DNA of 64,000 nucleotides from Catenaria anguillulae PL171 (Eukaryota; Blastocladiomycota; Blastocladiomycetes; Blastocladiales; Catenariaceae). The stretch's first letter is position 1. Each line of letters starts with the position of its first letter. The stretch lies in the NCBI GenBank assembly GCA_002102555.1, contig MCFL01000013.1, positions 475,410 to 539,409 of the forward strand. Reading direction: 5' to 3'. The notes under the pieces are model-generated. The model did not search any database and was not told where the DNA came from. It was given only the letters and a program-made list of their open reading frames with translations. A program made the translations under genes and the position numbers. Positions 53,113 through 59,809 of this stretch are shown piece by piece.

Positions 53113-53442
53113 AAACATGATTGTGTGCTTGTGCGTGTGTGTCAGGGTTCCCAATTGCATTGCAAGTCCTGCTCAAGGTACTAGTATGTATGACATGTTA
53201 ATCAGTACATGCGTTAACATCAATTGGATTGGCACTGACATCCATCACCATCAGCGTATGCACTGTTTTCAAGCGGTTTTCAGAGGTTGGCGGCGTAGTT
53301 GCGTGGCGCATTGAGTCAGCAATCCTCTTCGGCTGGGTCTTCTAGAAGAACACTGGAAGACCTCTGGAAGCTCTCTACCTTTGAACGGAAGACGGAACCG
53401 AACCGATGATAAAAGCCCGGATTGTATGGAAAATCAGTTAAG

Positions 53443-53453
53443 TGCATATATAA
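53443..53453 (+). promoter_or_regulatory. TATA box upstream of WDR70
   Basis: GCATATATAAG, about 45-50 bp before the start codon at 53495, implying a very short leader. Confidence 0.45.
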
Positions 53454-53494
53454 GACCAGGAAAGACACTCGACGCAATTCCCGCAAACATCACA

Positions 53495-55498
53495 ATGTAC
53501 TCGAAATCGAAACCGACCGCTAAAGCCAAGCAAAAGCCAACAAAGGCTCCGTCCGAGTGGGATCAGCTCAAGGCCATGATGCTGCCAAAGGGCTTTGGCC
53601 TTTCTTCTGCCTCTGCTCGCACTCCGCCAACCAATCCAAAGCAAAAGGAGTCGCCTCACTCTTCTCCCGAGCTTGGCCCCATGCCATTGCCCCCTCCCCC
53701 TCCCCCTCCCGCCGACCACACCGCACACCCACCCTCCGACAGCATGCACATGCACATGCACATGGACATGGACACGGACGCACAAGCACACGCACGATCG
53801 GAATCGGAATCAGATTCAGATTCAGACTCGGACTCGGACCAGCCCTCTGACGACCTTTCCACCCTCCCACTCACCCACACCTTCCCTCTCCCGACCTCCT
53901 CCAAACCCTTACTCTCGCTGAGCTGCGACCCCTCTGGCACACGCCTCGCCACGGGGTCGGCCGATTCGTCCCTGCGCCTGTTTGACTTTGCAGGCTTGTC
54001 GCCACACGCCCCGCACCCATTCAAATCCCTGGACCCGAAATCGGGCTCGGACGCGGCCGCCCAGCCCATCGTGGACGTTGCGTGGTCCGCCTCGGGCGAC
54101 TCGTTGCTTGTAGCCACGAGCGGCGGGTGCCAACCAATTGTGTATTCGCGCGATGGCTTGAAAATGTGCGAGTTGGCAAAGGGAGACATGTACATTCGCG
54201 ATTTGCGCCGCACCGAGGGCCATACGGCAGGCGTCACGGGTGTTGCGTGGGATCCACTTGTCAAGGGCAAATGCATGACGGGCAGTAGTGATGGGACGAT
54301 TCGTGTTTGGGATGTGACCAAACCCAGGAAATCCAGTGCCGTCATTGTTTACCGGCAAGCTTCCAGGGTGGGCGTCACATGTGTTGCTTATGCGCGCAAC
54401 GGGGCTTGGATTGCGGCGGGCGCTGCGGATGGGTCCATTCGGGTATGGAAGGCTGCGGGACCGTCGTACAGCGTGCCGGCGTGCGACATTGGTGCGCGTG
54501 GCTCCGGGTCCGTGGTGGCGGTCGAGTTTTCGGGCGATCCGCGCGTCTTGTTTGCACGGTACGAGGATGGGTCCGTGGCGAGGTGGAACTTGGCGCCGCC
54601 GCCGCCGCCGTCCGGGTCGGGGTCGGGGTCGGTGCCTGCCGACAAGCTCATGCCCAAGCTCGCATCGCCTGCAGCCACGTCACAAGGGTTACCCTTGCAC
54701 GCACACTTGCAAGGCAACTTAGCCCAGTCCCCCTCGGACACACTTGTTCTGGTTGGCGGCCTGCATCTCGCCTCCCCCTCAGCCGATCCGCGCACGGCGC
54801 CAGGCCGCCTGCTCGTTCTCGACGCACGCACGCTTGCGCCCATGACGCATGTCGACCTCGACCCGCACTTTGGCGGCGTTGGACGTGTCCACTGGTGCTC
54901 GCGCACCAACCAAGTTGTGGCCGCCACTGCCTCGGGCGCATGTGTGGTGCTGTACAGCGACGAGCACAGCGACAAGGGCGTCAAGCTATGTGTCGGACGA
55001 GCGGGCGCATCCAAGCGCAAGACACAATGGGTCGACGAAGAGCTCGAGCAAGTCCTGTTGGAGCGCGCAGGGGCAGAGCTCGAGATTGCCGCACAGCGCA
55101 TGGCCAAAGGCAAGGGCAAGAAGGGCAATGCCCTGGTTCAAGTACACGGCGGCAAGATCTCCAAGCGGCAATTGGCAGCCATTCGTGGCGACGTTGTGCC
55201 AGCCAAGCGTGTGGCAGAGCGCGGCAAGTTGGCGGCCCAGTCCGAGGGCGGCGGGGCCATCTTTTTCGCGCAGTCGGATACACACAGCAAGCCGCCCATG
55301 GACCGCGATGTGGATCCGAGGGAGGCCATCCTCAAGTATGCAGAGGTTGCGGCAAAGGATCCGTACTGGATCACGCCCGCGTACAAGGCCACGCAGCCCG
55401 AGCAGGTGTTGGCAGACAAGGTGGTGGAAGAGGATGAGGCAGAGAGGGTGATTGCAAAGGAGGATAAGCAAAAGGTGTTGCGCAGGAGGGATTTTTAA
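53495..55498 (+). CDS. WDR70: WD40 protein WDR70 homologue
   Basis: Single exon, 667 aa. WDR70 is linked to H2B monoubiquitination and DNA double-strand-break repair. A disordered N-terminus carries Pro runs, a (HM)n tract and an (SD)n acidic tract. The propeller follows: SCDPSGTRLATGSADSSLRLFDF, KGDMYIRDLRRTEGHT, CMTGSSDGTIRVWDVTKP, GAWIAAGAADGSIRVWK. The diagnostic C-terminus is RGAKLCV-like KGVKLCVGRAGASKRKT and DPREAILKYAEVAAKDPYWITPAY, which matches animal WDR70. A Gly-Ser run at about residues 370-378 is encoded by a (GGGTCG) repeat. Start chosen at 53495, close behind a TATA box. No frame breaks. Confidence 0.93.
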   Translation: MYSKSKPTAKAKQKPTKAPSEWDQLKAMMLPKGFGLSSASARTPPTNPKQKESPHSSPELGPMPLPPPPPPPADHTAHPPSDSMHMHMHMDMDTDAQAHARSESESDSDSDSDSDQPSDDLSTLPLTHTFPLPTSSKPLLSLSCDPSGTRLATGSADSSLRLFDFAGLSPHAPHPFKSLDPKSGSDAAAQPIVDVAWSASGDSLLVATSGGCQPIVYSRDGLKMCELAKGDMYIRDLRRTEGHTAGVTGVAWDPLVKGKCMTGSSDGTIRVWDVTKPRKSSAVIVYRQASRVGVTCVAYARNGAWIAAGAADGSIRVWKAAGPSYSVPACDIGARGSGSVVAVEFSGDPRVLFARYEDGSVARWNLAPPPPPSGSGSGSVPADKLMPKLASPAATSQGLPLHAHLQGNLAQSPSDTLVLVGGLHLASPSADPRTAPGRLLVLDARTLAPMTHVDLDPHFGGVGRVHWCSRTNQVVAATASGACVVLYSDEHSDKGVKLCVGRAGASKRKTQWVDEELEQVLLERAGAELEIAAQRMAKGKGKKGNALVQVHGGKISKRQLAAIRGDVVPAKRVAERGKLAAQSEGGGAIFFAQSDTHSKPPMDRDVDPREAILKYAEVAAKDPYWITPAYKATQPEQVLADKVVEEDEAERVIAKEDKQKVLRRRDF

Positions 55499-55757: not shown

Positions 55758-56915
55758 ATGACTCTCACTCCCCCGTCACCCACTCGCCCGCCGCTTACTC
55801 TGCCCGCCGTGGCCTCCACAGCGCTTGCTGTCTTAAGTTCCCACGTGTTCCCAGCAGAAACCAACATGCTTGCGTTCCCACTCACCTTGGCACTCATTGC
55901 CATCTTTGGTGTCCCGCACGGCGCCGCCGACCACCTCGTACATGCATGGCGACATCGCCCAACGGGCCGTAAGGGCGGCGACGCAAAGTTTTTCGCTGGA
56001 TACATTGCGCTCGTGGTTGCACACGCCACGCTCTGGTATCTTTGCCCACCCGCCGCATTTGCACTTTTCCTATGCATGGCCGTGTGGCATTTCGGGCAGG
56101 GCGAGTATGAATATTTGGGCGGGCGCAGTCCATTGGCGTACTATGGATGTGCAGCCACGTGCACTCTGGACGCTTGGGTCGTGTATGTGTCGAGGGGAAT
56201 CATGATCCTATCGCTCTTGACGTTTGCGCAGCCAAACCTCACGTTCCCCGTGATTCAAGCCGTCACGACGCTCGATACAGAGTGGATTCCAGATCCATCC
56301 GCTCCATCGACATGGGCCGCTTGCCGAATGGCCATGACTGCTGGCGTTGCCCAACATGTCCTCCTCTTGACCTACCTGCTCGGACACTCAACCCGGCCCA
56401 CCGCCTTTCTCCGAGACCACGTTCCAAAACTCGTTGCCTTGGCGCTGCTCTACACGCACGTCAACGCCTACCTGGCATTTGGCATATACTTTGGGCTCTG
56501 GCACGCGCTCGAGTTCTTCTTGTCTGTGAAATCGTCGCTTGCCCTCACGACGCGTGGGATGATTGCATGGGCGGTTGTCCCGCTCTCGCTCCCTGTGCTT
56601 GGTGCCATGCTTGTCATGGGCATGTATTGGGACCAGGTTGGGATGGCTAGCGAGGTGGCGTATTGGCGAGCGTTTCTTGTGGTGGTGTCGTCGGTCACAA
56701 CGCCGCATGTGGTGTATCTGGAGGGATTTGTTCAGGTGCGGATGGCGGGCGGGAGCAAGGAGCCCAACAAACAAATGCGACCACAGCGAGAGAGCAACGA
56801 GGTCGAGATCATCAAGTCCGCCGTCGTCAATAGCTGCGAAAATTCGCGAAAAGCGCCCGTGGTGTCGCAATTGGCAAAGAGCCCAACAGTCGTGTGCGTG
56901 GGAAAAAGTCGATAG
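55758..56915 (+). CDS. blh: Brp/Blh family protein (beta-carotene 15,15'-dioxygenase type)
   Basis: Single exon, 385 aa, polytopic (about eight to nine helices). The family, known from rhodopsin-bearing prokaryotes, splits beta-carotene into two retinals using non-haem iron held by His residues. Visible signatures: FGVPHGAADHLVHA (His54), AVWHFGQGEYEY (His111), SRGIMILSLLTF after it, YFGLWHALEF (His248) and TTPHVVYLEGF (His316). The order and spacing match the family throughout. The form with WHAL and no second His four residues later (WHS-x-RH in the marine bacterial enzyme) differs from the characterised enzyme, so activity is not certain. After the last helix there is a hydrophilic tail of about 60 residues not expected in bacterial members. 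It lies 260 bp after WDR70 and faces the 7TM gene tail-to-tail. Fungi normally make retinal with a CarX-type oxygenase. Confidence 0.85.
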   Translation: MTLTPPSPTRPPLTLPAVASTALAVLSSHVFPAETNMLAFPLTLALIAIFGVPHGAADHLVHAWRHRPTGRKGGDAKFFAGYIALVVAHATLWYLCPPAAFALFLCMAVWHFGQGEYEYLGGRSPLAYYGCAATCTLDAWVVYVSRGIMILSLLTFAQPNLTFPVIQAVTTLDTEWIPDPSAPSTWAACRMAMTAGVAQHVLLLTYLLGHSTRPTAFLRDHVPKLVALALLYTHVNAYLAFGIYFGLWHALEFFLSVKSSLALTTRGMIAWAVVPLSLPVLGAMLVMGMYWDQVGMASEVAYWRAFLVVVSSVTTPHVVYLEGFVQVRMAGGSKEPNKQMRPQRESNEVEIIKSAVVNSCENSRKAPVVSQLAKSPTVVCVGKSR

Positions 56916-56979: not shown

Positions 56980-58164
56980 TTAGAAATTCATTTGTGGATT
57001 CTGTTGGTCATCAGCCCTTGACCTTGCCACATCCAGTAAGCTCTCACCCACCATGATCTCACTGTTGCCCCCACCGTCCCTCGTTCCCGTTTCGGCAGCC
57101 GCGTGCACTCCCTGCCGCCGTAGCCCTTTCCTCTGCCGATTGTGCATCTTGAGAAGACGCTCAAATGACGACTCGAGGGCAATTGTCGTGGTCATGACCA
57201 GATTCAAAAGGGCGTTGTTGCGCACGGGGCCGATCATGGGAACAACCGCCAGCAAGGATGATGCGATCCATGTGAAGAAGATGCCGTAGGTGAGGACACG
57301 AAAAGTCTGAGTCAGTGGATAGTTGATTTGCGCTGGCTTGCCGCCAGTCGGCGGCCGATACTGGGACACAGTGGTCACGGTTGTTGTTGTAGAGCCACAG
57401 TGTGGTAAATGATTGGGCGCGCCGAGTCTGTTGGGTCCGATGCCGCAGTCGACGTCAAGGTAGTTGCCAACGCCAGAGAATCCTTGCGCCTTGTTGACCC
57501 GTCGCCGCTTGCACCTGTAACTTTAGATGCAGTGCTTGGCTCAGTGGCCGACCGTCGGCTCACCATCCTCAACGACCACACGGATCCGCCAACTGCAATG
57601 AATGGAATCATCCCTGTTCCAACGGTTGCCCACAATGGCACCCACCGTTCCGCGAGCAGCACGCTTATCGGCATGTTTCCCGTGTCTACAATAGCAATGG
57701 CCTGATACACGACGCCGCTCGCATGCAACGCCCACGCGCAAAGACACGCCACCCGCGTCCACTGCACGAACTTGGTACGTTGCCCTGGATCCGTCACCAC
57801 AATGACTGCACAGCGATAGCTCAGGCACATGACTGAAAGCGGCGCAATGCCCGAAAATGTCATGGCGAATATGAGCCGATGGACCAAGACGGGATACACG
57901 CCGTATTGCCAGGCTAGTGTGAAGTGTGCAATGTTGTTGACGGCATCCCGCAAAGTTGGCGAGTGCAAGTGCGAACAATAGGTTGGCACGAATGTGGACG
58001 TAGCGCAAGGACGAGTCCGAGGCAATGAACCGTGACCGATGCGAGCGCGGGAAGGCTTGGGGGCCAATGTATAGGATAAGCAGCGGGAGGCAGAGCACGG
58101 CACTTAGTGACCAGGTTGAGATGGAGGCAAGGGCGGTCAGAGGCGGGAGAGCAGGTGCGGACAT
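56980..58164 (-). CDS. Seven-transmembrane protein of unknown family (copy A)
   Basis: Envelope from the ATG at 58164 to the stop at 56980, about 390 aa. Helices: STWSLSAVLCLPLLILYIG; VHIRANLLFALALANF; VHRLIFAMTFSGIAPLSVMCLSYRC in two parts; VACLCAWALHASGVVYQ; VPLWATVGTGMIPFIAVGG; FRVLTYGIFFTWIASSLLAVV; and LLNLVMTTTIALESSFERLL, then basic KMHNRQRK. A Ser/Thr-rich loop lies between helices 5 and 6. Two frame changes: one extra G in the GGG at 57947-57949, judged against copy B (LATMLDALNN versus LANF-ADAVNN), and another in the loop near 57,400. Layout is receptor-like, but no known GPCR family is recognised, and helix 7 has no Lys for retinal binding. Confidence 0.6.
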
Positions 58165-58439
58165 GATTGTAGGTCGTTTGGCGAGCGTAGCATTCAGGGA
58201 AACTTCATTGCGTCATTTTGCGCTTGACTGGGCAGCGATCGCGACAAGATTGCCTGCGAGGCCATGATCTCCTAATGCCGGGGATGGTGTACTCACGCCC
58301 CAACAGAGGTTGTAAACACGAGACAGCCGCTTTTGGTAGTAGCAGACATTTAGAACATACCTCTGCATGTTCCGTGCTTCTTGGATCGGGAACATTTCGT
58401 AAATACCTATTCGTAGTCATTGGCTCGCTCGCCAATTTT
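58165..58439. other. Short intergenic spacer in 7TM pair
   Basis: About 275 bp between copy A start and copy B stop; nothing recognised. Confidence 0.4.
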
Positions 58440-59646
58440 TCACTGATTTGTTCTATTCAAAAACTCTCCCGCAACATCCAACAGACTCTCACCTACCATT
58501 TCACCATTGCCATTTCCAACCCTCGTCGTTTTCTCCTCCCGCGCACGATCCGCCTCACCTCCAACCCGGCGCTGTGGGATTGCACGCCGATTGTGCCTCT
58601 TGAGCAGCTGCTCAAAAGACGATTCGAGTGCAATGGTCATGGTCATGATAAAATTGAAGAGAGCAATTGTTCCGAATCGGGCCAACCATGGGAAACAGGA
58701 GCAGGATCGTGGCCAGGACCCAGGTTGTGAAAATTCCATACGTCAAGATGCGAAAGGTCTTGGTCAGTGGGTAATTTATGGGCCCAGGAGACCGCGAAAG
58801 AGTGAGCGTGGTCGGTGAAACACCGGCGACAAGACTTCGACTCAGCGACGCCGTCGCTGAAGTGCTGGTTGGTACCTGCGACCCATCACAGTCCTTGACG
58901 GTCGCCAATACACTGCTCTCCCGCTCAGCCGAGTGCCACTGATCCGTCTTGGCAGCGCCTATTACTACATGACTTGTGTGATCGTCTTCGGCAGCTCCTC
59001 GCATCTTTTCCTCTGTCGCCGCCCATCGTACGCCAATCGCAACGACCACGCGGACCCACCCACGCTATAAGGGCAACACCGCAGTCCCAGCCGTCCCCCA
59101 CAGCGGTACCCACCGATCGAGCAGCTGGAGTTCGGTGGTACCCCGTCCGCGTGATCATGGAATACGTCATCACAAGCACGCCCGCAGCATGTAATGCCCA
59201 AGCACCGATGCAGGCGACTTGCGACCCTTTCACATACCTCGTGCGCTGCACCTGGTCAGACACAATGATTACGGCACACCGATAGCACAAGCTGAGAACT
59301 GCAAGCGACGGAAGCGGCGAAAATGTCACGGGCAGCACGAGCCTATGCGCCAAGGTAATGTACTTGCCCCAGGCCATGCAATCGTAAAATGCGTCGCATT
59401 GTTTAGCGCATCCAACATCGTGGCAAGCGTGAGTGCGAACAAGAGGCGCGCTCGGATGTGCACGTAACGTAGTGACGATTCCGAGGCAATGAAACGGTGG
59501 CGGTTGGAGCGTGGGAATGCTTGGGGAGCGACGCGGAAGGCAGGAATGGCACGAGGACCACAAAACTGAATGACCAGGTCGCAATGGATGCACCGCGACA
59601 GCCTCTGGATGAGAACGGGTGGCTCGGTGGAGGGAGGTGCGGACAT
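58440..59646 (-). pseudogene. Seven-transmembrane protein, copy B, many frame breaks
   Basis: Tandem paralogue of copy A in the same orientation. Matching blocks are MSAPP at the start, APQAFPRSNRHRFIASESSLRYVHIRA, LDALNNATHFTIAW, LAHRLVLPVTF, ACIGAWALHAAGV, LLDRWVPLWGTAGTAVLP, SVGGSAWSLRL, INYPLTKTFRILTYGIF, and IALESSFEQLLKRHNRR. These lie in different frames, needing about seven single-base changes (for example near 59,375, 59,150, 59,085, 59,040 and 58,665). This is more than in copy A over the same length, so real decay is possible, but clustered assembly error is not excluded. Confidence 0.55.
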
Positions 59647-59809
59647 TTTTGGGCGGGTGCATTAAATGCTGTACTTTGGTATAAGACATGGGTTCCTTGG
59701 GTATTGAAGATGTGTTGCTTGAAGTGCTCTTTCATATACGTTACGTTTTGTATTTGCATAAATGTTTTAATCAATGTCCTGTCAATACCCGACCGCGACA
59801 ACCAAAACT

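What the first reader, a model, noticed from the sequence alone, without database searches (positions are those of the whole stretch)
55758..56915. Intact microbial-type Brp/Blh retinal-forming gene in a flagellated fungus
The protein carries the family's ordered His motifs (PHGAADH, WHFGQ, YFGLWH, TPHVV) in a full-length single-exon frame flanked by ordinary fungal genes, so it is not contamination by a separate contig. Fungi are known to make retinal with CarX-type oxygenases. Blastocladiomycetes steer zoospores with a rhodopsin-guanylyl cyclase that needs retinal. A Brp/Blh gene could therefore be the retinal source for zoospore vision, obtained by transfer from bacteria or retained from an early ancestor.
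Basis: partly seen in the sequence, partly recalled or inferred. Interest (0 to 1): 0.88.

Follow-up and report, generated by a model that had tools for sequence, protein, structure and literature searches.

The report
Bacterial-type retinal-making gene in fungi
A swimming fungus, and relatives in two other genera, carry a native copy of a gene family that bacteria use to cut beta-carotene into retinal, so it may supply the pigment for fungal spore vision, though another kind of carotenoid-cutting enzyme is in the same genome and nothing has been assayed.

Summary
Window 55758-56915 (+) is an intact, intronless 385-residue Brp/Blh gene (PF15461 114.7 bits, cut-off 28; TIGR03753 118.4, cut-off 95.25). 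The genome is Catenaria anguillulae: a named database protein is identical to the copy on contig C121. The gene sits beside WDR70 and recurs with it on three more contigs, so it is native. Orthologues occur in Blastocladiella emersonii (the phototaxis model; annotated 'hypothetical'), Allomyces javanicus and A. arbusculus. The four form one clade, 100/100: one origin at or before their common ancestor fits best. The donor is unresolved, and other eukaryotic Blh could not be included. The genome also has beta-carotene-pathway genes, a rhodopsin-guanylyl cyclase, and RPE65/CarX-family oxygenases, so Blh is a candidate for the visual retinal synthase, not the only one. All four fungal proteins have Phe where their nearest bacterial relatives have a His. 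Fungal Blh is mentioned, with no species named, in a published tree (Rius 2023, PMC10016063); no held paper has both 'Blastocladi' and 'blh'. New member of a known kind; the vision role is plausible and untested.

The parts
55758..56915 (+). Brp/Blh-family gene, 385 aa, single open frame
   Evidence: PF15461 114.7 bits (cut-off 28); TIGR03753 118.4 bits (cut-off 95.25)
55914..55934 (+). PHGAADH motif, residues 53-59, with invariant H54 and nearly invariant H59
   Evidence: 58-row alignment; column counts
56085..56099 (+). WHFGQ motif, residues 110-114, with invariant H111
56487..56519 (+). YFGLWHALEFF, residues 244-254, with invariant H249 and the fungus-only Phe253
   Evidence: Phe in 4 of 4 fungal rows, His in 23 of 23 near rows and 47 of 105 others
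56700..56714 (+). TPHVV motif, residues 315-319, with H317
53426..55498 (+). WDR70 gene, upstream neighbour (start codon uncertain)
   Evidence: E 2.4e-55 to WD repeat-containing protein 70
56983..58212 (-). downstream neighbour, no Pfam match, reading frame split in this copy; host context only

Best explanation
The gene encodes an integral-membrane Brp/Blh beta-carotene 15,15'-dioxygenase that is native to Blastocladiomycota. Conserved histidines in four long predicted helices (H54/H59, H111, H249, H317) would hold a non-haem iron in the membrane and cleave the central bond of beta-carotene, made by the fungus's own phytoene synthase/lycopene cyclase and desaturase, to two all-trans-retinal. 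That retinal would load the rhodopsin-guanylyl cyclase that steers zoospores, possibly together with an RPE65/CarX-type oxygenase of the same genome. The gene was probably acquired once by horizontal transfer, at or before the last common ancestor of Catenaria, Blastocladiella and Allomyces. Shown: family membership, native location, presence in three genera, one fungal clade, co-occurrence with pathway and photoreceptor genes. Inferred: catalysis, metal site, use for vision, source and direction of transfer.
For: Both family models over cut-off. Conserved His set. Confident all-helical model, pLDDT 86.2, pTM 0.82. Orthologues in B. emersonii on a 2.64-Mb contig and in two Allomyces. One fungal clade, 100/100. 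Same locus on four contigs, two alleles with dN/dS 0.33 and none of the 11 amino-acid changes at an invariant position. CarR-type lycopene cyclase with phytoene synthase on C403 and C311, crtI-type pieces on C235, rhodopsin and guanylate-cyclase domains side by side on C405. B. emersonii phototaxis is lost under norflurazon and restored by retinal (Avelar 2014, PMC4046227, passages).
Against: RPE65-family loci exist in the same genome and B. emersonii has a listed 'carotenoid dioxygenase' whose family I could not check. All four fungal proteins have Phe253 where all 23 near rows have His; I recall, from no call, that this His is annotated as an iron ligand. No expression or activity data. Donor not resolved. 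The dN/dS of 0.33 rests on 22 differences.
Confidence: 0.6

Rival explanations
1. The RPE65/CarX-type oxygenase makes the visual retinal, as assumed for other fungi. The Blh protein is redundant, works in another life stage, or acts on other carotenoids.
For: C420 carries matches to nearly the whole RPE65 profile (positions 3-83, 117-229, 230-303, 318-468) and C223 a partial set (200-293, 321-469). Pieces of both match carotenoid cleavage dioxygenase 6vcf best, with RPE65 and beta-carotene 15,15'-monooxygenase also on the lists. GT-AG joins that leave the C420 frame open exist. Literature counts a 'carotenoid oxygenase' in the pathway.
Against: Blh is kept in three genera with its histidine set intact, which argues for a function. 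The RPE65-type genes' substrate and bond are unknown; no full gene model was made.
Confidence: 0.25
2. A diverged homologue that has lost dioxygenase activity and serves another role, for example carotenoid binding.
For: Long stem to the fungal clade (1.54); 22 fungus-only invariant positions, among them E252-F253-F254 beside H249 and H89; His253 of the near rows replaced.
Against: H54, H111, H249 and H317 kept in all four rows. Position 253 is not His in 58 of 105 other family rows, one of which (L088, Ser) lies directly beside a rhodopsin gene. The TIGR03753 cut-off is passed.
Confidence: 0.12
3. On origin: the gene came from another eukaryote, or was kept from an early eukaryotic ancestor, rather than directly from bacteria.
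For: Rius 2023 (passage) places fungal Blh in a cluster with cryptophytes, dinoflagellates, an arthropod and an amoebozoan. My tree resolves no bacterial sister.
Against: The reported eukaryotic distribution is patchy.
Confidence: 0.35
4. Bacterial contamination of the assembly.
For: None found.
Against: Same 539-kb contig as WDR70; same WDR70 neighbour on three more contigs. GC3 0.66 against 0.71 in WDR70, codon-usage correlation 0.53. Orthologues in two other genera form a fungal clade with it.
Confidence: 0.01

Closest known systems
Brp/Blh family, TIGR03753 / PF15461 (bacterial and archaeal beta-carotene 15,15'-dioxygenases)
   Same: Profile matches over both cut-offs, conserved His set, helical membrane protein
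   Different: Fungus-only E252-F253-F254, H89 and other positions; long stem; only 18-28% identity to the non-fungal rows of the 58-row alignment
Eukaryotic Blh of Thecamonas trahens, Oxyrrhis marina and cryptophytes such as Guillardia theta (Rius 2023 PMC10016063; PMC7714340; passages)
   Same: Blh-type enzyme in a eukaryote with microbial-type rhodopsins
   Different: T. trahens Blh is fused to the carotenogenic enzymes, O. marina's is single-domain; the Catenaria gene stands alone.
RPE65 / CarX / BCO1 carotenoid oxygenases (PF03055)
   Same: Expected product, retinal, for some members
   Different: Different protein family: the window protein has only a PF15461 match. Other loci of this genome do match PF03055

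Membership tests
Brp/Blh family (TIGR03753, PF15461) | Score over the curated cut-offs along the whole profile | tested here: met
   118.4 against 95.25, profile 4-257 of 260; 114.7 against 28, profile 2-261 of 267
Brp/Blh family (TIGR03753, PF15461) | Family-wide histidines (H54, H111, H249, H317; H59 nearly so) | tested here: met
   H54, H111 and H249 in 132 of 132 rows, H317 in 131 (one gap), H59 in 124
Brp/Blh family (TIGR03753, PF15461) | Second His four residues after WH (recalled as an iron ligand of characterised Blh; not shown to define the family) | tested here: inconclusive
   Absent: Phe in 4 of 4 fungal rows. But His is also absent from 58 of 105 other rows, one of them rhodopsin-adjacent, so it does not define the family
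Brp/Blh family (TIGR03753, PF15461) | Polytopic helical membrane protein | tested here: met
   All-helical model, long helices; 6 strong hydrophobic stretches by a simple hydropathy scan
Brp/Blh family (TIGR03753, PF15461) | Cleavage of beta-carotene at 15,15' to retinal | not testable with these tools
   Needs an enzyme assay
CarX / RPE65-type carotenoid oxygenase (PF03055) | PF03055 match in the window protein | tested here: not met
   Only PF15461 listed at E up to 0.1

The most novel reading that the evidence does not exclude
In Blastocladiomycota the main retinal synthase of zoospore vision is a Brp/Blh enzyme gained once by an ancestor of the group, with an active-site region in which a histidine of its nearest bacterial relatives has become Phe. 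The RPE65/CarX-type step assumed for fungal vision would then be wrong, or only a backup, in this phylum.
Probability: 0.35. Interest if true: 0.7.

Novelty: new member of a known kind. Interest (0 to 1): 0.5.

Why it matters
The retinal source for fungal zoospore vision is described as a 'carotenoid (di)oxygenase' (Avelar 2014 for B. emersonii; Galindo 2021 and 2022 in surveys; passages). A Blh orthologue in B. emersonii itself, annotated as hypothetical, gives a second candidate that can be tested in the model organism. If it is the one, a eukaryotic eye-like organelle depends on a bacterial-type chromophore enzyme, and surveys that count only RPE65-type enzymes misjudge which zoosporic fungi can make retinal (Galindo 2022 reports no carotenoid oxygenase in most Rhizophydiales, passage).

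Tried and rejected
Contamination was considered and rejected (see rivals). A paralogous expansion was considered for the four PF15461 hits and rejected: the other three contigs carry the same upstream neighbour and align at 97-99% over the stretches compared. A viral or mobile carrier was sought: three scans of viral contigs and one of the phage collection found no relative; plasmids gave 2 Methylobacterium records with one query and none with another. No solved structure of the family was found by sequence. Naming the donor was tried and given up: three alternative placements gave p-AU 0.379, 0.235 and 0.431, and fungi with the 'near' group, already in the best tree, has support 68/87. No structural library search was run.

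Rows dropped before the counts: the prokaryotic loci L046-L165 gave 117 open frames with the PHG motif; with 77 of 81 database proteins (the four fungal ones set apart, P0001 not used because it is the C121 allele of the window gene) these made 194 rows, cut to 128 at 62% identity, plus 4 fungal rows. The 73-row tree used 69 of those 128, picked by me, plus the 4. The 'near' group was named after the first tree was seen.

Full report
The gene. Window 55758-56915 (+) is one open frame of 385 residues, ATG to TAG, with no intron. It matches TIGR03753 'blh_monoox' with 118.4 bits (cut-off 95.25) and PF15461 with 114.7 bits (cut-off 28), along nearly the whole of each profile. No solved structure of the family was found by sequence. 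An AlphaFold2 model on a 58-row alignment is confident (pLDDT 86.2, pTM 0.82) and all-helical; H54/H59, H111, H249 and H317 lie in four different long helices.

The organism and the locus. The closest database protein, P0001 (97%), is from Catenaria anguillulae PL171 and bears the name 'beta-carotene 15,15'-dioxygenase-domain-containing protein'. It is identical to the protein of contig C121 of the window's assembly. So this genome is Catenaria and the gene already has a domain name in public databases. The genome is 41.07 Mb in 457 contigs. PF15461 rings at four places: C35 (this one), C127, C121 and C117. The CDS on C127 is identical; that on C121 differs by 22 bases (11 amino-acid changes, none at an invariant position; dN/dS 0.33); C117 is broken in frame. 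All keep WDR70 beside the gene; C127 and C121 align over the 9.7 kb compared at 98-99%. I read this as one locus in several haplotypes or redundant contigs. The rhodopsin-cyclase gene on C405 has similar doubles with split frames on C221 and C235.

Distribution. Three protein searches found a B. emersonii protein (P0002, 45%, 2.64-Mb contig, 'hypothetical protein H9P43_003719'), an A. javanicus protein (P0017, 38%) and an A. arbusculus protein (P0044, 38%). With the profile of three fungal rows these and P0001 score 468-642 bits, partly because three of them made or nearly match the profile; the next protein scores 67. No other protein named as eukaryotic appeared among the 16, 34 and 52 hits. 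Searched with the same fungal profile, 23 of 396 genomes of the phylum of an Ilumatobacter locus and 57 of 395 of the phylum of a Balneolaceae locus had a match at E 0.001.

Phylogeny. In a 132-row FastTree and a 73-row IQ-TREE the four fungal rows form one clade (100/100), Catenaria with Blastocladiella (99/90), Allomyces outside. The stem is long (1.54). The fungi lie on the far side of a branch (100/99) that sets off 21 rows, among them rows from the Ilumatobacter-phylum genomes and named actinobacterial proteins. They fall nearest Balneolota, Rhodothermota and Ilumatobacter rows with weak support (68/87). Holding them with the 21 rows, with 25 rows mostly of Bacteroidota, or with the Rhodothermota/Ilumatobacter subset is not rejected (p-AU 0.379, 0.235, 0.431). 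Haloarchaea and the known eukaryotic Blh are missing from my tree, and many rows have an unusual amino-acid make-up (tool warning).

Active-site region. Across 132 rows H54, H111 and H249 are universal and H317 is missing only from one gapped row. At position 253, four after His249, all 23 near rows and 47 of 105 others have His; the other 58 have Ser 32, Val 11, Ala 8, Gly 5, Thr 1, Asn 1; all 4 fungi have Phe, within a fungus-only E-F-F. I recall, without a call, that databases annotate this His as an iron ligand in characterised Blh. It is not kept family-wide: L088, with Ser there, encodes a Blh directly beside a rhodopsin gene, though that protein's activity was not tested either. A motif screen found such a rhodopsin neighbour in 4 of 120 loci. 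H200 is shared by the fungi and 10 of 23 near rows and by none of the 105 others; H89 is in the 4 fungi only.

The rest of the pathway. Phytoene-synthase and CarR lycopene-cyclase matches lie together on C403 and on C311; crtI-type desaturase matches lie on C235 in pieces, each below the model's full-length cut-off. C405 has a bacterial-type rhodopsin domain (PF01036) followed by a guanylate-cyclase domain (PF00211, E 1e-56) in another frame, consistent with the fusion that Avelar 2014 reports for Catenaria (passage). RPE65-family matches lie on C420 (nearly full profile in four pieces) and C223 (profile 200-293 and 321-469 only). The pieces searched match carotenoid cleavage dioxygenase 6vcf best in the PDB, with RPE65 and beta-carotene 15,15'-monooxygenase also listed. 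So both families that can form retinal are present. Cryptophytes with both Blh and Rpe65 are reported too (Rius 2023, passage).

What is in print. Avelar 2014 (PMC4046227, passages) shows that B. emersonii phototaxis needs carotenoid-derived retinal and lists a 'carotenoid dioxygenase'. Galindo 2021 (PMC8371127) and 2022 (PMC9616733) (passages) survey 'carotenoid oxygenase'; their query set included cleavage enzymes of a giant virus, so a Blh query may have been among them, which I could not check. Rius 2023 (PMC10016063; [quoted passage not shown] its main text has no occurrence of Catenaria, Allomyces or 'Blastoclad'. No held paper contains both 'Blastocladi' and 'blh' (open-licence PubMed Central papers only, no preprints). 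The presence of Blh in some fungus is therefore not new. Its identity as a Blastocladiomycota gene with a B. emersonii orthologue, and its candidacy for zoospore vision, I did not find discussed in the searches (listings; passages only from the papers named here).

Verdict. A real, native Brp/Blh gene of Blastocladiomycota, most likely a working retinal-forming enzyme (0.6 for the whole account), with the RPE65-type oxygenase as the main rival for the visual role. A new member of a known kind, of clear interest because the question can be tested in a model organism. The odds given to the origin rival and to the function rivals are not exclusive of each other.

Noticed in passing
56983-58212 and about 58470-59655 (-): Two tandem paralogous genes of unknown family downstream of the Blh gene; the nearer one has a split frame in the window's copy but a whole 410-residue frame on contigs C127 and C121; no Pfam match.
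   Followed up: partly
P0035 (database protein): A 653-residue protein with both a lycopene-cyclase domain (PF05834) and a Blh domain (PF15461): a natural fusion of the last two steps to retinal.
   Followed up: no
L032 (C405), L033 (C221), L034 (C235): The rhodopsin-guanylyl cyclase gene occurs on three contigs, with an open rhodopsin frame on C405 and split frames on the other two; like the Blh copies this suggests redundant haplotigs with sequence errors or decay in the assembly.
   Followed up: partly
L088:2043-3795: In a Candidatus Sericytochromatia bacterium MAG a rhodopsin gene lies directly before a Blh gene whose protein has Ser at the position of Phe253.
   Followed up: partly
L031 (C223:273660-274689): A second RPE65-family locus matches only profile positions 200-293 and 321-469: divergent, incomplete or decayed.
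   Followed up: no
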